From: a virus
Length of the DNA stretch: 55,777 nt
Reading direction: 5' to 3' (one strand)
IMG/VR virus record: IMGVR_UViG_3300025280_000039
Coordinates: 1-55,777 of that record
Part shown: piece by piece, positions 2,251-55,777 of the stretch
Position numbering within the stretch: the first letter of the stretch is position 1
How the letters are laid out: each line of letters opens with the position of its first letter
The notes under the pieces: model-generated
Databases searched by the model: none
Seen by the model: only the letters and a program-made list of their open reading frames with translations
What the model was told of the DNA's origin: nothing
Translations under genes and position numbers: made by a program

Positions 2251-2447
2251 GCCCTGGACCGTGCGAGAGGTGCCACCAACCGATTTTGGATGAGGATGAT
2301 TACCATTCGGATGATTCGGGCGAACATCACCAAGCCTGTTTTGACGAGTGGTTCAAGGAGGAGGGGGCCTATTGGCGTCCGATTTACGATCGGGAAAAAC
2401 GTGCTGGACTGATACCGAAACGAGGAGATGATAGTGACCGTATTTGA
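2247..2447 (+). CDS. Small zinc-finger-like protein
   Basis: A 66-residue protein starting at ATG 2247 (overlap ATGA with the previous stop). Residues 6-37 carry a CxxC...HxxxC pattern ('CERCHQP' then 'HHQACFDEW'), the layout of a small zinc-binding knuckle. The rest is acidic and charged. It ends inside the start region of the downstream Tas-like gene (overlap about 14-20 bp), so the two are probably translated together. A regulatory or partner role for the next gene is only inference. Confidence 0.6.
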   Translation: MSPGPCERCHQPILDEDDYHSDDSGEHHQACFDEWFKEEGAYWRPIYDREKRAGLIPKRGDDSDRI

Positions 2448-3300
2448 TGAGAGTAAAATTGAGCAGAATGTTCGTGACAGGTTTGCAGCGGAAGAAGACG
2501 CAATCCGGATACCAGTACGAAAACTGGACCGGGACATACTCAAGGCCGCTTCGGAGTTGACATCGACGGAGGCGAGATTTCTGGTCGATGCTTATTACTC
2601 GATGCAAGCTGGGCGCATCCGCGCCAACAACCAGATTCGTGCCCTCACGGAAAGCGGGGAACCGCATGAGAGCATCGGTTGGCTTTCAACCGAGAGCCGT
2701 GTGCTGGAGGAGAGTGTCAAACGCGCCTTGGACGTCTACTCGGATAACCACCCTGTCGGAACCAGAATGCGGACCGTCGTGGGGGTCGGGCCTGTTATTG
2801 CAGCAGGCTTCCTGGCCCACATCGATATAAACCGAGCGCCAACAGCGGGTGCAATCTGGCGCTATGCAGGACTCGACCCAACCAGCGAATGGCGCAAGGG
2901 TGAGAAGCGACCCTTCAACGCGGCGCTCAAAACCTTGTGCTGGAAACTCGGCGAGTCCTTTGTGAAGGTGTCAAACCACCCCGACTCTCTTTACGGACAA
3001 ATCTATAAGGAACGCAAGGACATCGAGCTCAGCAAGAACGAGGCCGGCGACTTTTCCGACCAGGCTGATGCTAAATTGGAAAGGTACAAAATCGGGAAGA
3101 CTACCGACGCCTATAAAGCGTATTCCATTGGCAAACTGCCACCGGCCCACATTCATGCGCGCGCCAAGCGGTATGCTGTGAAAATGTTCATCTCACACCT
3201 CCATGAAATCTGGTACGAGATCGAACTTGGGAAACCGGCACCCGTTCCCTACGTCATGGCGCACGGCGGCCATGTCCATAAGATCGAGCCGAACTGGTAG
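2434..3300 (+). CDS. TasA-like Nop/IS110-type protein (TIGR-Tas candidate)
   Basis: A 288-residue protein. The start is placed at GTG 2434 because GAGGAG (2422-2427) is 6 bases upstream; the ATG at 2428 directly abuts that site. Residues about 30-110 are a long helical, coiled-coil-like segment. Residues about 115-132 form a helix-hairpin-helix motif ('VVGVGPVIAAGFLAHIDI'), followed by 'WRYAGLDPTSEWRKGEKRP' and a basic helix. This order and wording match the C-terminal domain of IS116/IS110/IS902 transposases, which is related to Nop domains. The N-terminal DEDD RuvC-like domain of IS110 is absent and no HNH is visible. Ser151 lies where IS110 enzymes keep a serine. A conserved His/aromatic tail ('AVKMFISHLHEIWYE') ends the protein. 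The stop codon runs directly into an 18-bp periodic array. In the published TIGR-Tas family, Nop-domain proteins without a nuclease (TasA) sit beside such arrays. A stray transposase fragment is the alternative. Confidence 0.8.
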   Translation: MTVFDESKIEQNVRDRFAAEEDAIRIPVRKLDRDILKAASELTSTEARFLVDAYYSMQAGRIRANNQIRALTESGEPHESIGWLSTESRVLEESVKRALDVYSDNHPVGTRMRTVVGVGPVIAAGFLAHIDINRAPTAGAIWRYAGLDPTSEWRKGEKRPFNAALKTLCWKLGESFVKVSNHPDSLYGQIYKERKDIELSKNEAGDFSDQADAKLERYKIGKTTDAYKAYSIGKLPPAHIHARAKRYAVKMFISHLHEIWYEIELGKPAPVPYVMAHGGHVHKIEPNW

Positions 3301-4120
3301 CATCATCCACGAACCAAGATGGGAGAGAGGTCCAGGCAAGCAGAGCGAACCAACGCGTGAGAGAGAATCATGGGTGTTGACAGAATCAATTGGAGAAAAT
3401 GATCCAACCGGAGACGAGGGAACCAAGTGAGAAGAGAGATCCACACTTGGCAAGCAGGGCGAGAGGTCCATTGAAGGAGAGCGAACCAATGGGTGAGAGA
3501 GAATCAGGATCCAGGGAACGAATCAGGTAAACAGAATGATCCAGGGAACGCGAGCAGTTTTACATGCGGAACGAGAGGTCCATCCGAGGCGAGGGAACCA
3601 TCTGCGAAGAGAGAATCAAGAATGTTGAACGAATCAACAACTCCGAATGAATCAAGCTTTTGTGAACGAATCAAAGGTTCGGAATGATCCAGTTCCATCT
3701 GAGCGAATTTTGCCAATCAAGAAGAGAGAATCAAGGTAGATGACTCAGAAGCAGTCAGACCGACGTTTTAAATCCACTCTTGGAGACCAGAACCACCAAT
3801 GATGAGAGATTCAAATCCATTAGAGGAGAGAGATCCAAATCCATATCCACGGAGAGATCCATCCGGGGCGAGCGAACCACAAACCAAGAGAGATTCAAAT
3901 CCACTCGACAAGAGAGAACCACCTTCTCTGAGAGATCCATTTACCGGAGAGCGAGCCAGTGCCAGAGAGAGAATCGAAGAACAGGAACGAATCAGGTACC
4001 ACGAATGATCCATGAAAAAAGAGGGAACCATCCGCGAAGAGAGATCCAACGGTCTACAGGGAACCAACGATGACGAGAGATCCACCCAGTCAGAGGGAAC
4101 CAATTGAGAAGAGAGAACCA
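3301..4120 (+). repeat. TIGR-like array (18-bp units, 36-bp higher-order period)
   Basis: About 38 recognisable repeats of consensus GANNGAWYCA, separated by about 8 variable bases, fill the whole gap between the Tas-like gene and the RHH gene. The unit is 18 bp. Two repeat classes alternate: class 1 (GAGAGGTCCA, GAGAGATCCA, GAGAGAATCA, GAATGATCCA) and class 2 (GAGCGAACCA, GAGGGAACCA, GAACGAATCA). Class 1 copies start (counting the 9-nt core) at 3326, 3362, 3398, 3435; 3462, 3498, 3535; 3574, 3610, 3646, 3683; and 3968, 4004, 4040, 4076, 4112, so they recur every 36-37 bp. Spacers vary and all frames contain stops, so the array is probably transcribed but not translated. A 36-nt period with two short spacers is the layout described for tigRNA precursors. 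Degenerate units lie at 3444-3461, 3553-3573, 3702-3724 and 3743-3795; 24-bp units lie at 3805-3912. The transcription strand is assumed to follow the upstream gene. Confidence 0.85.
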
Positions 4121-4134
4121 TTTAGGAGTGTGAA

Positions 4135-4530
4135 ATGATAACTGAGCGAAGTTTCGATCGCAGCATTAAGAGGATTATTTCCGGCGTGACATACAACACC
4201 GAGACAGCGACGGAGGTCGCGGGGGTGGTTGGTGAGGCACTCTTTAAAACTCGGTACGGTTCTTATTTCATCGCTTACGAAAACTCGGAACGTGAATGTG
4301 ACAGGGGGCTGTCCCCGATATCTAGGGAAGAGGCTAGAACGTGGCTAAAAACCCACTATCGGCGGGAGTTGCCGCCATGGACGTCCAACGCAGAGCGTCG
4401 GATTACGCTGCGCATGCCGAGCACGCTAGGAATCCAAATTGACGCTCTGGCGAAGAGCAATGATCAATCGACAAATGCTTGGATCATCCGGTGCCTCGAG
4501 CGCTGTGTCCGAGCTCAAGGAACTAACTGA
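4135..4530 (+). CDS. Ribbon-helix-helix (Arc-like) DNA-binding protein
   Basis: A 131-residue protein. ATG 4135 follows AGGAGTG at 4124, immediately after the last array repeat. The N-terminal 80 residues are of unknown type. Residues about 88-128 ('RRITLRMPSTLGIQIDAL' then 'NAWIIRCLERC') match the Arc/MetJ or HicB-type ribbon-helix-helix fold: a beta strand, then two helices, with an Asn-Ala-Trp turn. Such proteins usually act as dimeric repressors. It may regulate the left operon or the array (inference from position). The stop overlaps the next start as TGATG. Confidence 0.7.
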   Translation: MITERSFDRSIKRIISGVTYNTETATEVAGVVGEALFKTRYGSYFIAYENSERECDRGLSPISREEARTWLKTHYRRELPPWTSNAERRITLRMPSTLGIQIDALAKSNDQSTNAWIIRCLERCVRAQGTN

Positions 4531-5462: not shown

Positions 5463-5922
5463 GCTGCTTGCAGCATTGTTAATGCTTCCGCTTTGTGTGG
5501 CGGCGGTGGACGACTTTCCGCCGGTGACAAGTGACGAGCAGTACTGTATGGCCGAAGCCATGTATTTTGAGGCTCGAGGCGACGGTTGGCGGGGGATGGT
5601 AGCTGTAGGAGCGGTGGTGATGAACCGTGTGGCTGACCGCCGTTATCCGGACACGGTGTGTGAGGTAGTGCACCAGGGAGCGGAGCGCAATGACCGGCTC
5701 TGCCAGTTCAGCTACTTTTGTGATGGGCTTCCGGAAGCGTTTGGTGACAGTGAGCTCCGGGACTTGGCATATCGGATGGCTGATGCGGTCTTGAGCAGTG
5801 GGCGGGTGTCGGTGGTCGGCGTAGCCAACGCAACACATTACCACGCAATGCGCGTAGCACCGTGGTGGGCCGACACTCTCGAGCTCCAGGGATGCGTGGG
5901 CGACCACGTCTTCTACCAATGA
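5452..5922 (+). CDS. SleB-type cell wall hydrolase (endolysin) with signal peptide
   Basis: A 156-residue lytic enzyme of the SleB/Hydrolase_2 family. GTG 5452 has a perfect GGAGGTG five bases upstream and overlaps the previous stop. Residues 1-19 ('KNELLAALLMLPLCVAA') are a signal peptide or signal-arrest segment, so export through the host Sec system is likely. The domain follows: 'YCMAEAMYFEARG' with candidate catalytic Glu at 35 or 40, 'AVGAVVMNRV', 'YPDTVCEVV', 'CQFSYFCDG' and 'ATHYHA..V.PWW', ending 'GDHVFYQ'. It should cut glycan strands of peptidoglycan at lysis. It is far from the holins at 48 kb, and a second muralytic enzyme is at 17076-17522. The stop overlaps the next ATG. Confidence 0.85.
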   Translation: MKNELLAALLMLPLCVAAVDDFPPVTSDEQYCMAEAMYFEARGDGWRGMVAVGAVVMNRVADRRYPDTVCEVVHQGAERNDRLCQFSYFCDGLPEAFGDSELRDLAYRMADAVLSSGRVSVVGVANATHYHAMRVAPWWADTLELQGCVGDHVFYQ

Positions 5923-6440
5923 AAAACATGGACTTTGACCGAGATGAGTGGCGCACTCCAGCGTGGCTGTTTCGGGTTGCCTCTCGAAACTTCGGCCCTT
6001 TTTCGCTGGATGTCGCGGCAACTGACGAGAATACGCTATGTCCATCCTTTTTTACCAAAGACACAGATGCACTGTCGCAAAAGTGGCCTTCCCAAGATGA
6101 AGAGGACGATTTTGGGATTGACGTGGTCTGGTGCAACCCGCCTTATTCCAACATTACACCTTGGCTCGAGCACGCTATTGAGTGTCGATCTGAGGTGGTG
6201 TTTCTCTTGCCGACGCCGAACGGTGAGAAGCGTGACAGACTGATTTTCGGATACGCCACGGACATTTTGTTTTTCGACAAGAGAGTGGCTTTCGTGCAGC
6301 CGAACGGGACGCCCAGAATAGGCAATCCCCGAGGTTCGTGTTTAGTGAGGTTTGCGCCTCTGGTCCCTGGCCGTTACGGTTGGCGTCCCAGGCACAAAAA
6401 AGACAGGGTCAGAGCAGATTTATATGAGGGTGCCAGCTAG
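5919..6440 (+). CDS. dam: Phage DNA N6-adenine methyltransferase (Dam type)
   Basis: A 173-residue protein starting at ATG 5919, which overlaps the SleB stop (ATGA). It has the compact phage Dam layout: 'DEWRTPAWLF' near the start, 'FSLDVAATDEN' for AdoMet binding, the catalytic DPPY-like 'NPPYSN' at residues 73-78, 'VVFLLPTP' and 'RGSCLVRF'. It probably methylates adenine in phage DNA to evade restriction, which fits the ArdC-like protein at 50752-51687. It converges with the minus-strand cluster, overlapping the XRE gene by 4 bp. Confidence 0.85.
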   Translation: MKNMDFDRDEWRTPAWLFRVASRNFGPFSLDVAATDENTLCPSFFTKDTDALSQKWPSQDEEDDFGIDVVWCNPPYSNITPWLEHAIECRSEVVFLLPTPNGEKRDRLIFGYATDILFFDKRVAFVQPNGTPRIGNPRGSCLVRFAPLVPGRYGWRPRHKKDRVRADLYEGAS

Positions 6441-21054: not shown

Positions 21055-23913
21055 CTAACCTTTAGTAAGCACGTAAACGCCTTTATCATTAAGCTTGTAT
21101 GTTCCCGTAGCATCAAGTATTTCCTGTATTCTGGTCAAGTGCTCTACCGGTACGCTAGTACCAAATTGTCCTTCTTGGGCAGCAAAGGCAAGAATATTTT
21201 CCCGAGTAGGATTGACAACAACTTCTTGCACAGTCGGTCTAGGCAAAGGAAGTCCTGCTTCGTCTGTTTTTATCGGACCCACACTATAAGCTCCCCACTG
21301 ATCTTCAAACTGATTCATTTTGGTAACTGAATTGGTGTAGGATTTCCTAATTCCTAGCTCTATTGCCATCAATCTTTCTTTTAAAACCTCGGGGTCAGCG
21401 AACAGGTAGTCTTCATAAAGACCCACTATCTGTTGTGCCAAGTCTCTGTCTATGTTCGATATGTTTTTAGATCCTTCTCCCAATAACTCCCTAATCAGGA
21501 GGTTAGCAAGACGCTGCTGTTGCATCTCGTACATCGCAATATTCTCTCCGGTTCGCACATTTTCCTCAAACCAGGCCCATAGACTTCTCTGCTCTTTATA
21601 ATCATTAAGACGCTCGTCTGCGTTTCTCCAGTGTTGCTCCTCATGCTCCCCGGCTTTTATAGCTGCTTCCGCGAGTTGTTCGTCAGTGGCGCCTGCCATA
21701 CGGCTACCCAAACTGTTCCCTGCGTCTTCATCTTTTCTTCTCAGCTCCAAGTTGAGAAAGTTCGCACCTTGATTTAAAAGTTTCGCAACGTGCCCCTTAA
21801 AACCCGTGATAGTATAGTCCTCCGCTATATCCAAAGAACTACTTATAAGGCCGAACATATTCAACTGTTTCTGGACGTTCTGAGCGGCTTCATTGTAGTC
21901 TTTCGCCGCTGTCGCATACTGTCTCACTTTCTCTGCTGTATTACCCCCCGCTTGCTTAATAGCTGCTTCTATTACTTCCGTAAAAGCAGTCGCGTTTTTT
22001 ACGCGGGTGTCTATCGCTGCTTGTATTGCTAACTCTCCTCCAAACAATTCCGGATTGCCTTGAACCGTAGAATAAGGAACGTAAGCGATCTTGCCTTTTT
22101 TGTATAGTACGTTTCCGTCCTCGTCCGTGATGTCCCTCACAGGCATTACTTCTATGGGTTTTTTGCCCTCTAATTCCAACGCTCTTGTGTCTTCTCTTCT
22201 CTTGTTGTTCGCGGCAAGCGCGTACTCTGCGGCAGAAAGTTTAATCTGGCGTTCATACTCACGCTTTTCTTTAGCGCCCTCTGTATGATCATCTATTGTG
22301 GCAAGAAACCCGTCCGCTATGTTTTTAATTGCGAAAGGGCTTGTGCCGGCGGCAATCGCCAATCCGGTTTTTACCCAAGCCATTGACTTTTCAAAATCAC
22401 TTGCGCCCTCGTACTCAGGAGCTGTCTCTATAAACTCTTCCTTAAAGGTCTTTAACCAATCTTTCAGATCCTCCGGGTCGTCGTCCTTCGCCGTTGTTAA
22501 TATTCCCTCCGTAACTACTTTCTCACTACTAATAAGTTTTGGTCTAACCCCTTGCTGGCCGCTGTCTTCGTCTTCGGCTTCGTTTTTCAACTTCTTTAAG
22601 TTAGTTTCCGCCTGTTCGGTTAAGTTACTTTGGTCGTCGCTTAAACCGGCTATTATTTTCTTTTTTACCCTAGAGGCTATATGGGATGCTCGTTCGTCTT
22701 CAAAAGCAGAAGAGGCTACCGCAGCTTCGGCTTCATCCTCTTCGGTAAATCGGTCCTCAAGGTCCATATAAGCATTAGGATCTATTACAACAGGTCCTGG
22801 AGCTAACTGAGGAGGTAACATAGCATCTTCGATTCGTTCAGATGTTGTCTTTCCGGTAAATCGGTCCGCGGGATCCCTACCTACAGCATGTCTACCGGCA
22901 CCTATGAACGGTTGACTGTCCGAGCCCCAAGAAATTTGTTCGTCACCTGTTACAAAATCCTGCACGTTCTCGGCAACTGTCGGATCGGGATAATACCGTC
23001 TCACGGGTTCCTTAATACCTGTAGGATCTTGCGCGAAAGGTGGTAAGCCGGTTTGACGTATTAAATTGGCAGCGGCTTCATCACCTAGCTTCATAGCTTC
23101 GCCCCTTATCTGCGTGGCCATGTCCGTTGTAGTTGGTCTGCCCACAGCTTGAAGAGCCGCATCATATGGATGCTGATGCTGACCCAGTCCCTCCGACCAT
23201 CCAGTGGCCTGTCTCAACAACTCCCCGGGAACAATCGTCTCGCCAGAATGGAGCGTTGCCGCTCTGCCTGGGTCCTCTCCGGCATACGCGATCGGATCGG
23301 CAACATAATCATAACGTGCTTGTAGGGCTTCTTGTGACGGGGGCTGAGTTGCGCCTATTTCCAAAGCTACTTCGCCACCGGGAAAATCAAGAGCATTTGC
23401 CTGCGCCGAACCGGATTCGCCTAATGTAAATGTCTCCTCACCAGGCCCTGGTAGCACGTCGCCTGACCAAAGAGCATCTTGTGCATCTAGGCCACGACGC
23501 CAAGCTTCTTTTGCCGTTCCGGCTGCTACGTCCGTTACTTCTTGAACAAGACTGGCGGCATTATCTAGACTTTCTCCCGTCACACTGGCCACATGCGTAA
23601 CTACCTGCTCAAATGTTTTGGCACCAGCGGCAAACGCCTGCTGTATTAACTGAGACAACTGAGCTCGACGTTGTTTTGCGTTTTCCGCACTTCTTTGGCT
23701 GAACTCAGCGATTGTGCCACCTAATGCCTGCGGAGGAGTGCCCATAGCAAGACCCCCGGTTTGAAAATTAACCGGTCCACCCTCGTTCATGGTCACTGAA
23801 TCTATGAGAGGCGAAGAGGAAGCCAGGATGCCTGCCGCTTGACTGGGAGGGACGAGCCCCCCACCACGGAACATCATACGGTTAGCCAGGATTGATTTAA
23901 TAAGCTTTGCCAT
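21055..23913 (-). CDS. Internal virion protein
   Basis: A 952-residue protein. The N-terminus has Gly-rich turns ('MMFRGGGLVPPSQAAG', 'NEGGPVNFQTGGLAMG') seen in other genes of this block. Residues about 220-235 contain 'HSGETIVPGELL', a motif echoed in the 24959-26275 gene. The middle is acidic and helical with 'SDFEKSMAWVKTGLAIAAGT', and the C-terminal third is helical. It is probably a virion core or ejection protein, by size and context. The start ATG 23913 lacks a clear Shine-Dalgarno, suggesting coupling. Confidence 0.55.
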   Translation of the reverse strand: MAKLIKSILANRMMFRGGGLVPPSQAAGILASSSPLIDSVTMNEGGPVNFQTGGLAMGTPPQALGGTIAEFSQRSAENAKQRRAQLSQLIQQAFAAGAKTFEQVVTHVASVTGESLDNAASLVQEVTDVAAGTAKEAWRRGLDAQDALWSGDVLPGPGEETFTLGESGSAQANALDFPGGEVALEIGATQPPSQEALQARYDYVADPIAYAGEDPGRAATLHSGETIVPGELLRQATGWSEGLGQHQHPYDAALQAVGRPTTTDMATQIRGEAMKLGDEAAANLIRQTGLPPFAQDPTGIKEPVRRYYPDPTVAENVQDFVTGDEQISWGSDSQPFIGAGRHAVGRDPADRFTGKTTSERIEDAMLPPQLAPGPVVIDPNAYMDLEDRFTEEDEAEAAVASSAFEDERASHIASRVKKKIIAGLSDDQSNLTEQAETNLKKLKNEAEDEDSGQQGVRPKLISSEKVVTEGILTTAKDDDPEDLKDWLKTFKEEFIETAPEYEGASDFEKSMAWVKTGLAIAAGTSPFAIKNIADGFLATIDDHTEGAKEKREYERQIKLSAAEYALAANNKRREDTRALELEGKKPIEVMPVRDITDEDGNVLYKKGKIAYVPYSTVQGNPELFGGELAIQAAIDTRVKNATAFTEVIEAAIKQAGGNTAEKVRQYATAAKDYNEAAQNVQKQLNMFGLISSSLDIAEDYTITGFKGHVAKLLNQGANFLNLELRRKDEDAGNSLGSRMAGATDEQLAEAAIKAGEHEEQHWRNADERLNDYKEQRSLWAWFEENVRTGENIAMYEMQQQRLANLLIRELLGEGSKNISNIDRDLAQQIVGLYEDYLFADPEVLKERLMAIELGIRKSYTNSVTKMNQFEDQWGAYSVGPIKTDEAGLPLPRPTVQEVVVNPTRENILAFAAQEGQFGTSVPVEHLTRIQEILDATGTYKLNDKGVYVLTKG

Positions 23914-32338: not shown

Positions 32339-34300
32339 TTATGCTGAATTCTTGAATCCGTACATATGGATAAAACAATCTCTGAAATCAACTGGATCGG
32401 TGGAGTTATCTACTTCTAATTTAAATTTAACGGCATCTACTACAAAAGTGAGACCGGCTCCTCTACTATTACCTACACCTATGTATCTAAAAGCTTGCCC
32501 CCCACTATTAATAAACCCATCAAAAACTACTTGGGCTTGCGCTAAATATGATGTAGTACCGGGGCACTCAGGATGTTCCATTGTAATTTCCATAGATAGA
32601 TAACGACCAGTGGTTGAATCCAATTGTTGAGCACCGGCCATAGTCAGGCGTATGGCCGAGTCACCATTTGAATATTCAGCATTCTTCCAATTGTCATTTG
32701 CACCACTAACGTCACCCAGCGTTCCAAGCTGCCATATATAATTAGACGAAACATAACTTGATCCATTGTCTTCACTGAACTGCATAAGTAATTTTGAGGC
32801 GGAGTCTGGGGCTATATACAGATGCCATTTATATGCAAAATAAACGGAGTCATCTATCAAAGAAGTAAATGTAACTTCTGAACCAGTTGTAACTACTTGA
32901 CTACCTAACCATACACAGGAACCACCACCACCCGCCGCAGCGCTTGCCCAAGTACTGCCATCAGAAGTCAAAACATTTCCCGATGTCGACGGTGCGATCA
33001 TCTGGAGTGCTGAGGTGCCATTTCCGAGTAATACAGAATTCGCCGTTAAGGTACTTGCCCCCGTCCCTCCATCAGCTACAGGAACATCCGTCCCTCCCGC
33101 TCGATAGATGGCATTACCCTCGACAGTCAAATCTCCCGCACCCGACCTCGCTAGAGTTGTGTCAGTAGCAGCACCAATATTTACTGCTGTAAATTGCGGA
33201 CTATCTCCTGTTCCAACCCCAATCGAGGTCCGTAAGGTAGCTCCTGACTCGGCCACTGGATCAGTGGAACCATCCCCAACGATCATTTGTCCATCACTCA
33301 ATACTGACATCGCCGTAATGGCACCAGTACCTGAGCCCAGCAGGACACCCCCGTCGGTTAATGAGCTTGCCCCCGTTCCCCCATCAGCTACAGGGACGTC
33401 GGTGCCACCGGCTCGATAAATTGCGTTACCTTCTACCGTTAGGTCACCAGCACCTGATCTAGCCAGGGTTGTATCAGTGGCAGCTCCAATGTTCACCGCC
33501 GTGAATTGCGGACTATCTCCTGTTCCAACTCCAATTGAGGTCCGCAGGGTAGCTCCGCTTTCGGCAACGGGATCCGTGGAGCCATCTCCAACAATCATTT
33601 CGGAGTCGGCCAAAACGGCCAAGGCAGTCACCGCTCCGGTTCCCGAGCCCAGCAACACGCCACCATCGGTTAAGCTGGTTGCCCCCGTACCTCCGTTCGC
33701 TACGGGGAGGGTTCCGGTTACTCCTGCCGTCAAACTTACCTGTCCCCACGAGACATCAGTCCCATCCGTCAGCACTACATTGCTTGCCGAACCTACGGCC
33801 AAACGGGCCGTTAAATTGGAGGCATTTCGTACAACGATGTCCCCCCGTGTGGTCAACGGTTCCACAAGGGCTGGGGCAACTACCGCGCCGCTTCCTGCTC
33901 CATCACAATAAACCAGGGCACGAGTGCCACTGGCTAACGTGTAATTAGCTCCGCTGCCTTGGCTAAAAATTAAAGAGAAGCCGCCAGAAGTTCCATCGAT
34001 GAAAACAAAAAAGGCAGTCGTGGTATTAGGCGCTATCGTAATTGTGCAGTTCTGACTTAACGACCCGGTAAACTTAATGACTCTGAACATCCCATCCTGA
34101 AGATTTTCAGTGCCCGATCCGGGGGAAGCTTCTCGAACAGTGAGGGTGGCTGTCGAGGCATCGGACAAGGCAACCGCCTTGTAAGCCGTAATGCGATCGA
34201 GGATGTCAAAATTGAAGTTGGTAGTGGTTCCCCAATCTCCGCTTTGATCACCGGTTGCCATCTCCTCGATGCCAAAATTTGTCGTATACGATGAAGCCAT
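32339..34300 (-). CDS. Tail fibre-like protein 2 with duplicated block
   Basis: A 653-residue paralogue of the 30265-31869 fibre, with matching N-terminal anchor ('MASSYTTNFGIEEMATGDQS', 'LTVREASPGSGTENLQDGMF'). The middle has a nearly exact duplicated block of about 110 residues containing 'VAESGATLRTSIGVGTGDSP' and 'AATDTTLARSGAGDLTVEGN'. The linker 'GGTGASTLTANSVLLGNGTS' is shared, and the C-terminal about 190 residues are unique, likely receptor-binding. TAGGAACG precedes the ATG. Two fibres with one anchor suggest wider or switchable host range. Confidence 0.75.
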   Translation of the reverse strand: MASSYTTNFGIEEMATGDQSGDWGTTTNFNFDILDRITAYKAVALSDASTATLTVREASPGSGTENLQDGMFRVIKFTGSLSQNCTITIAPNTTTAFFVFIDGTSGGFSLIFSQGSGANYTLASGTRALVYCDGAGSGAVVAPALVEPLTTRGDIVVRNASNLTARLAVGSASNVVLTDGTDVSWGQVSLTAGVTGTLPVANGGTGATSLTDGGVLLGSGTGAVTALAVLADSEMIVGDGSTDPVAESGATLRTSIGVGTGDSPQFTAVNIGAATDTTLARSGAGDLTVEGNAIYRAGGTDVPVADGGTGASSLTDGGVLLGSGTGAITAMSVLSDGQMIVGDGSTDPVAESGATLRTSIGVGTGDSPQFTAVNIGAATDTTLARSGAGDLTVEGNAIYRAGGTDVPVADGGTGASTLTANSVLLGNGTSALQMIAPSTSGNVLTSDGSTWASAAAGGGGSCVWLGSQVVTTGSEVTFTSLIDDSVYFAYKWHLYIAPDSASKLLMQFSEDNGSSYVSSNYIWQLGTLGDVSGANDNWKNAEYSNGDSAIRLTMAGAQQLDSTTGRYLSMEITMEHPECPGTTSYLAQAQVVFDGFINSGGQAFRYIGVGNSRGAGLTFVVDAVKFKLEVDNSTDPVDFRDCFIHMYGFKNSA

Positions 34301-44553: not shown

Positions 44554-44708
44554 CAGAATGTCCTCGTAGGCTTTTTAGCCCTCTTACGGTCCTGATCAGA
44601 TATGGTTCTACCGCTTTCGTTAAGCTTCTTCTTAGCCAAGGCTTTAGCCCTCTTACGGTCCTGATCAGATATGGTTCTACCGCTTTCGTTAAGCTTCTTC
44701 TTAGCCAT
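44553..44708 (-). CDS. 51-residue basic protein built from a perfect tandem repeat
   Basis: A basic protein of two identical 21-residue blocks containing 'AKKKLNESGRTISDQDRKRA'. The DNA copies 44574-44638 and 44643-44707 are identical over 65 bp, with 4 bp between, so the duplication is recent. ATG 44708 and TGA overlap both neighbours. It may be a DNA- or scaffold-binding peptide; function unknown. Confidence 0.65.
   Translation of the reverse strand: MAKKKLNESGRTISDQDRKRAKALAKKKLNESGRTISDQDRKRAKKPTRTF
44574..44707. repeat. Perfect 65-bp tandem duplication (69-bp period)
   Basis: Two identical 65-bp copies at 44574-44638 and 44643-44707 inside the small gene 44553-44708. Identity at silent positions shows very recent duplication; the reading frame is kept. 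Confidence 0.9.
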
Positions 44709-50136: not shown

Positions 50137-50264
50137 GGGTAGTGAGTACTTACTAACATCGATGCTCCCGACATAGATCTGGGTTAGTGAGTACTTACTA
50201 ACATCGATGCGCGCAAGGTCGACTCAAGCGGGGTTAGTGAGTACTTACTAACATCGATGCGCGC
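50137..50264. repeat. Three copies of a 29-34-bp dyad repeat
   Basis: Copies at 50137-50165, 50181-50214 and 50231-50264 share GGGTTAGTGAGTACTTACTA plus ACATCGATGC; copy 1 lacks one T and the GCGC tail. Each contains the imperfect palindrome TTAGTGAGTACTTACTAA. Spacing is 44-50 bp. They look like operators for a dimeric regulator or iterons. Confidence 0.85.
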
Positions 50265-50309
50265 TCGAACCAATGGCGAAAGCATGTTGTTTCTACCCTA
50301 ACATGGACG

Positions 50310-50751: not shown

Positions 50752-51687
50752 ATGAAGAAACGCAAAGATGTGCGCGCACTTGTTACGGCGGCACTTATCG
50801 AGCAACTAGCCGCCGGCACAAAACCTTGGTCAAAGTCGTGGAGTATCTCTGGCACTGGGTTACCCAAACGCCACACTGGCGACTTGTATCACGGGATCAA
50901 TCGGCTGCTACTTATGATGCTAGGTTACGATAACCCATATTTTATGACGTTCAATCAAGCTGCAATATTGTCTGGAATGACAAAAGATAAGGGTTGCAAT
51001 TGGATACGCGAAAACGGTAAAGGTGTTAGGTCAGGTGAGAAATCACCTGCTCACGTTGTCTACTCTGCACAGAAAACGGTCCGCGACTATGACAGCGATG
51101 CGCCAGACGCCAAGAAAGAAGTCTACTTATACTGTCAAAGTGCGGTTTTCAACGCTTCGCAGATCGACGGTTTGCCAGATCGATATTATCCAGCAACTAT
51201 CGAGATCGATGCTAACAAGACACTGGAACATCACACTGCAGCGGACGCACTAGTCAAAGCAATGGAAGATGAAGCTCCTATTGAATATCAAGGTGACAGT
51301 GCATTCTACGCACCAAGTCGAGACACAATTCGATGTCCAGTGCCACAAGCTTTCGAAAGCATGGACGCATTCTACGCAACCCTGTTACACGAGGGTGTGC
51401 ACCGTACTGGCCACAAGTCTCGGCTAGATCGGACACACGACTACTCTGAGAAAACTGGCAGAGCTCGAGAGGAGTTAGTGGCCGAAATTGGTGCAGCGAT
51501 GTTGTGCTGTGCAATTGGACTCAGCGATAAGCCTAGAGAAGACCATGCGAGTTATATCCATAGTTGGATCCAGTTATTGGAAAATGACAAGAATGCGATC
51601 TTCTCAGCCGCGAAACAAGCCGATAGCGCTATGGCCTACATGCTGGATCAAGCAAACCAGTTTCACGGACGTGTCATAGCGGCGTAA
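50752..51687 (+). CDS. ArdC-like antirestriction protein
   Basis: A 311-residue protein. AGGGGATAGC precedes the ATG. The N-terminal half resembles the ArdC ssDNA-binding domain ('LIEQLAAGTKPWSKSWSISG', 'NPYFMTFNQAAILSG', 'KGVRSGEKSPAHVVYSAQK'). The C-terminal half is a zincin-like metallopeptidase domain with 'LLHEGVHRTGHKSRLDR' (HEGVH at 213-217) and a downstream 'REELVAEIGAAML' giving a third ligand. Such proteins protect incoming DNA from restriction. As the first gene after the promoter it is probably the first phage protein made. The Dam-like methylase would add later protection. Confidence 0.88.
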   Translation: MKKRKDVRALVTAALIEQLAAGTKPWSKSWSISGTGLPKRHTGDLYHGINRLLLMMLGYDNPYFMTFNQAAILSGMTKDKGCNWIRENGKGVRSGEKSPAHVVYSAQKTVRDYDSDAPDAKKEVYLYCQSAVFNASQIDGLPDRYYPATIEIDANKTLEHHTAADALVKAMEDEAPIEYQGDSAFYAPSRDTIRCPVPQAFESMDAFYATLLHEGVHRTGHKSRLDRTHDYSEKTGRAREELVAEIGAAMLCCAIGLSDKPREDHASYIHSWIQLLENDKNAIFSAAKQADSAMAYMLDQANQFHGRVIAA

Positions 51688-53050: not shown

Positions 53051-53295
53051 GGAGCCCAGCTGGGCTCCGGCTCGGCAACCAACGCCGGCGAGCTCGACTC
53101 GAGGTAGCTTAGCATTCACCAGGTCACGGCAGCCGCGGCGACCAATGCCGGCTTTGCCCCGACCCCGACCGTCCCGACCCCGACCGTCCCGACCCCGACC
53201 CCGATTTAAGGGTATGCTAGGGTATTGCCCCGACCGAGATCGTCGCTCACAAGGCAACTGGTGAGGTCGGATCTTGCCCCGACCCCGAAAAAAGA
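53051..53295. repeat. CCCCGACC repeat cluster 1
   Basis: Non-coding. 53156-53205 holds repeated CCCCGACC units, with more at 53228 and 53276. The other strand is G-rich (GGTCGGGG) and could form quadruplexes. It lies between two converging operons. No gene is seen. Confidence 0.7.
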
Positions 53296-55098: not shown

Positions 55099-55200
55099 GC
55101 CCCGACCCCGACCCGAAACGCCAGCGATGAATCCCCGACCCCGACCCGAAACGCCAGCAATGAATCCCCGACCCCGACCCGATTTGACGGGATATGTGAA
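55099..55200. repeat. CCCCGACCCCGACCCGA repeat cluster 3
   Basis: Three near-identical units of CCCCGACCCCGACCCGA at about 55100, 55133 and 55166. The first two continue as AACGCCAGCRATGAAT, giving a roughly 33-bp period. The third passes into TTTGACGGGATATG, a promoter-like TTGACG followed 17-18 bp later by TAAAGT. Confidence 0.8.
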
Positions 55201-55506: not shown

Positions 55507-55777
55507 GATGTGAGACTATTCCAAGCACAACCCGGTTTTGCCCCCCTCCGGTTGTTGACGCTACTTAAAGGGGGCAATCGGCCACCGGGGTTTCTATCCC
55601 TTCCCCGGTGGCCCGGTCGGAGCTCTCAGCCCCTTGCTAGAGCTCCGACCACCTTTTCCTCACCCAGCTACGCTACCCCGCCGGCGCTACCTGGCCTCGA
55701 GACTCTGAGCCCGACCCCCGACCCCGACTCCCGACCCCGACCCGACTATTACGGTTCCCGAACCCCGACCCCGACTA
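55507..55777. other. Right end: two strong hairpins and CCCCGACC repeats
   Basis: No gene seen. GGCCACCGGGG / CCCCGGTGGCC forms an 11-bp stem (55580-55590, 55603-55613). GGTCGGAGCTCT / AGAGCTCCGACC forms a 12-bp stem (55615-55626, 55639-55650). Then CCCCGACC repeats run from about 55710 to the last base. The hairpins may end transcription of the 55243 gene or form a structured RNA. Ending in such repeats suggests the window edge is an assembly break rather than a true end. Confidence 0.6.

What the first reader, a model, noticed from the sequence alone, without database searches (positions are those of the whole stretch)
2434..4120. Candidate TIGR-Tas system: Nop/IS110-like protein plus 18-bp guide-like array
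A gene for a protein with the IS110-type C-terminal (Nop-like) domain is followed at its stop codon by about 800 bp of non-coding 10-nt repeats (GANNGAWYCA) and about 8-nt variable spacers. As I know the described TIGR-Tas family, Nop-domain Tas proteins sit beside tandem interspaced arrays that are cut into 36-nt RNAs with two short spacers, which bind DNA by a two-spacer code without a PAM. Geometry and neighbour match. That this phage uses it against rival phages, host genes or for its own regulation is inference.
Basis: partly seen in the sequence, partly recalled or inferred. Interest (0 to 1): 0.96.

Follow-up and report, generated by a model that had tools for sequence, protein, structure and literature searches.

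The report
Phage TIGR-TasA guide-RNA array system
This phage carries a genuine TIGR-Tas system, a small RNA-binding protein beside an array of short paired guides that should steer it to matching DNA; it is a new example of a system described in 2025, and its relatives show that phages change these guides very quickly.

Summary
Window 2428-3300 encodes a 290-aa Nop-domain protein without a nuclease (TasA type). It matches NCBIfam TIGR_Tas_endo at 210 bits (cut-off 100); TasH and TasR are the 11 best PDB matches to its predicted fold. From its stop codon to 4120 lies a non-coding TIGR array: 10-nt repeats, 8-nt spacers, 36-nt units, about 20 guides, some worn. The repeats are of two alternating kinds. 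Edge repeats pair positions 7-8 with positions 4-3 of the NEXT edge; loops pair 8-3 within themselves. Where neighbouring edges differ, next-edge pairing holds 5/5 and 5/5 here (same edge 0/5, 0/5), and 181/204 and 168/186 over 143 related arrays (same edge 19 and 17). This supports the published tigRNA unit from sequence alone. Most relatives, on varied phage backbones, carry such arrays. Arrays beside near-identical tas genes are collinear but differ by many whole 36-nt units. No spacer pair hit its own phage, and no target class emerged from 1.66 Mb of TIGR-phage DNA, an IMG/VR scan with control, or 275 Halomonadaceae genomes. Guide processing, DNA binding and role are inferred, not shown. 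New member of a known kind.

The parts
2428..3300 (+). tasA: 290-aa Nop-domain TIGR-Tas protein without a nuclease domain
   Evidence: NCBIfam NF052498 209.6 bits, cut-off 100; Pfam Transposase_20 at residues 113-153 only; phmmer hits TasR 9mty and TasH 21kl; AF2 model pLDDT 81 with TasH/TasR as best folds
3301..4120 (+). TIGR dual-repeat array, about 40 repeat copies
   Evidence: 30 exact GANNGAWYCA against 7 in the rest of the window; stops in all six frames; edge/loop alternation and pairing
3325..3443 (+). array block 1: 7 regular repeats (edges at 3325, 3361, 3397, 3434; loops at 3343, 3379, 3416); mixes G-C type and A-T type units
3461..3543 (+). array block 2: 5 repeats (edges 3461, 3497, 3534; loops 3479, 3516)
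   Evidence: edge/loop assigned by hand with the rule
3573..3691 (+). array block 3: 7 regular repeats (edges 3573, 3609, 3645, 3682)
3692..3851 (+). worn stretch with irregular spacing (23-38 nt) and broken repeats
3912..4120 (+). array block 4: 12 regular repeats; complete units start at edges 3930, 3967, 4003, 4039, 4075
4135..4530 (+). context gene with a HicB/ribbon-helix-helix-like C-terminus; its ribosome-binding-like AGGAG lies in the array's last spacer; among the TasA loci held it occurs only in the identical contigs, so it is probably not part of the system
   Evidence: Pfam HicB just under cut-off; weak PHROG partition/Arc-like hits; tblastn

Best explanation
A phage-borne TIGR-TasA system. 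The tas gene and array are probably co-transcribed. TasA dimers bind the array RNA through the box C/D-like ends of the edge and loop repeats, and a host RNase cuts in the middle of each edge repeat to give 36-nt guides (half edge, spacer A 8 nt, loop, spacer B 8 nt, half edge). Spacers A and B pair with opposite strands of a roughly 16-bp DNA site (target strand = A + 0-2 nt + reverse complement of B), without a flanking motif. As there is no nuclease, the complex should occupy and bend DNA rather than cut it. The most likely use is to block transcription, replication or maintenance of competing mobile DNA (about 50% likely on its own). Shown here: family membership, array anatomy, the pairing rule, rapid unit turnover. 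Inferred from the published relatives: processing and DNA binding. Inference only: the role. The confidence below is for identity and for the mechanism up to guided DNA binding, not for the role.
For: Curated family match; fold match to TasH/TasR; profile match to TasR at 2.6e-19 and TasH at 6.3e-12. Alternating repeats with next-edge pairing: window 5/5 and 5/5 against same-edge 0/5 and 0/5; 143 arrays 181/204 (7-4) and 168/186 (8-3) against 19/204 and 17/186. Arrays lie beside the gene in 84 of 93 loci parsed. A and B spacers are inherited together: 192 both-shared against 48 and 83 one-shared, while the wrong phase gives 122 against 179 and 111. Mechanism of tigRNAs and the tandem-spacer rule: PMC12045711.
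Against: No transcript or small-RNA data. No target found: no self match at 0-1 mismatch for any array in the DNA held, and exact matches among TIGR-phage DNA are near chance (8 against 0-6 for shuffled pairs). The window's array is partly worn (3692-3851), so not every unit need be active. No terminator-like 3' end was seen; the array runs into the next gene.
Confidence: 0.9

Rival explanations
1. The guides serve the phage itself: TasA and its guides regulate the phage's own genes or help integrate or package its DNA.
For: TasA lacks a nuclease; Faure et al. suggest DNA bending could help integrases.
Against: No spacer pair matches its own phage exactly or with one mismatch in the DNA held, the window being 55.8 kb and most other loci 10-20 kb stretches. 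Units change quickly between near-identical tas loci, which does not suit a fixed self target.
Confidence: 0.1
2. The guides aim at host chromosomal genes (host take-over or counter-defence).
For: Phage-borne systems often act on host genes; TasA could block transcription.
Against: Three spacer pairs of the Halomonas sp. NO4 prophage have no exact A+N0-2+rc(B) match in 275 genomes of its family, its own host included. Only three pairs and exact matches were tested; the window's host is unknown.
Confidence: 0.2
3. An IS110 transposase remnant beside an unrelated repeat.
For: Pfam and PHROG call the protein a transposase.
Against: No DEDD domain found; IS110 model far below its cut-off; IS621 only 12th in fold ranking; array kept beside the gene over dozens of phage loci with pairing rules that fit a guide RNA.
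Confidence: 0.01
4. A formerly active TIGR-TasA system now decaying in this phage.
For: The worn block 3692-3851 and irregular gaps.
Against: The gene is intact, and identical loci are held from two other samples (L002, L003). In the regular blocks all 11 successive edge pairs keep both base pairs.
Confidence: 0.07

Closest known systems
TIGR-TasA (Faure et al. 2025, PMC12045711), e.g. the Flavonifractor plautii locus
   Same: Solo Nop-domain Tas protein beside a dual-repeat array of 36-nt units; no nuclease
   Different: 8-nt spacers (16 nt per guide) instead of 18 nt per guide in FpTIGR; repeats read GA..YCA where the TasR repeats read UG..CCA; two unit types (G-C and A-T) mixed in one array
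SpTIGR-TasH of Salicola phage CGphi29
   Same: Phage-borne, 16 nt of spacer per guide; TasH structures are the best fold matches
   Different: TasH has an HNH nuclease; the window protein does not
TaTIGR-TasR (PDB 9mty)
   Same: Nop fold, edge and loop repeats with box C/D pairing
   Different: RuvC nuclease and 9-nt spacers in TasR
IS110 / IS621 bridge-RNA recombinases
   Same: Related RNA-binding C-terminal domain
   Different: No DEDD domain, no single bridge RNA, IS110 model not met

Membership tests
TIGR-Tas | Nop-domain protein of the Tas family | tested here: met
   NCBIfam NF052498 209.6 bits, cut-off 100; Foldseek ranks 1-11 TasH/TasR
TIGR-Tas | Adjacent array of two alternating 8-12-nt repeats | tested here: met
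TIGR-Tas | Variable spacers of about 8-9 nt, 36-nt unit | tested here: met
   window steps mostly 18 nt; 1133 of 1189 A and 1158 of 1189 B spacers are 8 nt over all arrays
TIGR-Tas | Box C/D pairing: edge pairs between successive edges, loop pair within the loop, with covariation | tested here: met
TIGR-Tas | Array begins and ends with truncated edge repeats, then a terminator | tested here: inconclusive
   ends are ragged by eye; 3' end runs into the next gene
TIGR-Tas | Array transcribed and processed to 36-nt tigRNAs | not testable with these tools
   needs RNA sequencing
TIGR-Tas | RNA-guided DNA binding by two spacers on opposite strands | not testable with these tools
   needs binding assays; no natural target found
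TasA subtype | No HNH or RuvC nuclease domain | tested here: met
   Pfam reports only Transposase_20; only helices ahead of the matched region in the model
TasA-TasParB operon | parB-like gene in the tas operon | tested here: not met
   the neighbours scanned are a HicB/RHH-like gene and genes without a Pfam match
IS110 transposase | Passes the IS110 family model | tested here: not met
   25.5 bits against a cut-off of 140
IS110 transposase | Conserved catalytic serine after the GL.P motif (the serine is recalled from memory) | tested here: not met
   the residue after DPT reads S, S, K, S, V, M, S, L, N in A1

The most novel reading that the evidence does not exclude
Phage TIGR-TasA arrays are fast-evolving guide collections whose evolving unit is the tigRNA itself, running mid-edge to mid-edge, gained and lost at internal positions without any adaptation genes, and kept in step with changing rival mobile elements.
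Probability: 0.35. Interest if true: 0.75.

Novelty: new member of a known kind. Interest (0 to 1): 0.45.

Why it matters
The biology of TIGR systems is open: natural targets, array growth and the role of nuclease-less TasA are all unknown (PMC12045711). This family supplies dozens of phage arrays related closely enough to watch guides come and go, a sequence-only rule that assigns edge and loop repeats and thus the right spacer pairing, and an isolated phage with a named host (Microcystis phage Mvi-JY20) that bears an unannotated array suited to bench work.

Tried and rejected
Targets in 1.66 Mb of TIGR-carrying loci under six geometries: A+rc(B) gave 8 exact, wrong phase 5, shuffled 0-6; one-mismatch counts level with controls. 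IMG/VR scan of a unit shared by five loci: 35 stretches against 27 for the A+B control. Halomonas prophage units: none in 275 genomes. Two Mvi-JY20 18-nt targets in IMG/VR: 5 and 1 stretches, two of the five being relatives of each other, about what chance gives. A seeming excess of changes in spacer A over spacer B (70 against 32 over 200 aligned units) was not kept as a finding: the pairs share history and two of five independent groups go the other way. Translated repeats: rejected by stops in all frames. Known RNA family: none in Rfam. Known defence family: none in PADLOC 2023. A tree of Tas proteins was not built, and the supplementary locus table of Faure et al. could not be read, so whether this very locus was listed there is unknown.

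Full report
OBSERVATION. The window (a 55,777-base virus record) has an ORF at 2428-3300 and, from its stop codon to 4120, a non-coding repeat array. GANNGAWYCA occurs exactly 30 times in the array and 7 times in all the rest of the window on both strands. All six frames of the array contain stops.

PROTEIN. Pfam gives only a short Transposase_20 match at residues 113-153. phmmer against the PDB hits TasR (9mty, 1.2e-14) and TasH (21kl, 5.6e-12). A profile of nine relatives gives 2.6e-19 and 6.3e-12, with IS621 at 0.0014. The AlphaFold2 model (pLDDT 81, pTM 0.73, nine sequences) matches TasH and TasR in ranks 1-11, then IS621. NCBIfam NF052498 TIGR_Tas_endo scores 209.6 bits against a cut-off of 100, and the IS110 model 25.5 against 140. 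The name 'endonuclease' does not fit this member: no HNH or RuvC domain was detected, so it is of the TasA type. PHROG 4285 'transposase' matches the same protein over its length and seems to be this family under an outdated name.

ARRAY ANATOMY. My parser found arrays in 84 of 93 loci that encode a clear relative (copies of the same record and the 11 weak, distant matches L115-L125 left out): 143 distinct chains, 2685 repeats. In nearly every chain one set of alternate repeats pairs position 7 with position 4 of the next repeat of that set and the other set does not. These correspond to the edge and loop repeats of Faure et al.. The phase was chosen by the 7-4 pair, so the 8-3 pair is the less biased check. 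Where neighbouring edges differ at position 3, position 8 pairs with the NEXT edge in 168 of 186 cases and with its own edge in 17; for 7-4 the numbers are 181 and 19 of 204. In the window it is 5/5 against 0/5 for both pairs. Loops pair 8-3 within themselves in 1175 of 1353 and 7-4 in only 177. Edge repeats such as GAGAGAATCA are therefore chimeras: the first half belongs to the upstream guide, the second half to the downstream guide. This matches the cryo-EM pairing described for TasR and supports, from sequence alone, a functional unit running from mid-edge to mid-edge. The window mixes G-C type and A-T type units; ten of its eleven clean units have matching edge and loop types.

RELATIVES. 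tasA sits on varied phage backbones: the window's neighbours 1777, 2229, 4135 and 4812 occur only in the identical contigs and its terminase is close only in L033 and L049 (83%), yet tasA matches 105 of the sequences held, some of them overlapping copies. In isolate genomes it lies in Halomonas sp. NO4 and Acidobacteriaceae KBS 96. One of 275 genomes in the Halomonas family has it, so it is sporadic. The window itself is a tailed-phage record with terminase, SU10-like portal, capsid and DNA polymerase genes.

ARRAY TURNOVER. Loci whose tas genes differ by a few per cent at the nucleotide level have collinear arrays in which many whole 36-nt units are present in one and absent in the other, at internal positions and without one growing end. 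For L074/L075 the tas proteins are identical over the compared stretch and only 4 units align among 12 and 44. A and B are inherited together (192 both-shared against 48 and 83 one-shared); the wrong phase gives 122 against 179 and 111. Half-unit replacements also occur. These alignments are my own dynamic programming over parsed units, without a shuffled control, and the pairs are not all independent.

TARGETS. Using A + 0-2 nt + rc(B), which I derived from the published cut pattern, no spacer pair matches its own phage with 0 or 1 mismatch, and matches to other TIGR phages are close to the wrong-phase and shuffled counts. One IMG/VR scan with its control and three scans of 275 Halomonadaceae genomes gave nothing of note. 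Spacers of 8+8 nt are too short to pick single targets from such collections; same-sample data are needed.

VERDICT. A new member of a known kind, confidently placed. Processing, DNA binding and role rest on the published relatives and on inference.

Noticed in passing
L013 about 5633-5990 (PP438412.1 about 22092-22450): Microcystis phage Mvi-JY20 has an unannotated TIGR array (edge ATGCGAGCC, loop ACGAAACCC, 9-nt spacers) after its Tas-like gene XAI95461.1, ending in a terminator-like hairpin; the annotated minus-strand ORF XAI95462.1 lies inside it.
   Followed up: partly
L190 7002-7020: One Mvi-JY20 guide (TGACGTTCT/TTCAATGGA) matches what reads by eye as the D-arm of a tRNA gene in an IMG/VR contig; may be chance.
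   Followed up: no
L008, 2096-3239 of the reverse complement: A second TIGR array of 38 plus 9 repeats on the strand opposite to tasA and several kb away.
   Followed up: no
50752-51684: ArdC N-terminal domain plus zincin-like metallopeptidase, a possible anti-restriction protein of the phage.
   Followed up: no
33054-33688: Two 312-bp direct repeats, 76% alike, inside the long minus-strand ORF 32339-34300.
   Followed up: no
44574-44707: A perfect 69-bp tandem duplication between two minus-strand ORFs.
   Followed up: no
50140-50268: A 50-bp unit repeated 2.7 times in the gap between opposed gene blocks, perhaps a control region.
   Followed up: no
53157-53204, 55100-55182 and 55710-55743: CCCGAC-rich short tandem repeats near the window's right end.
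   Followed up: no
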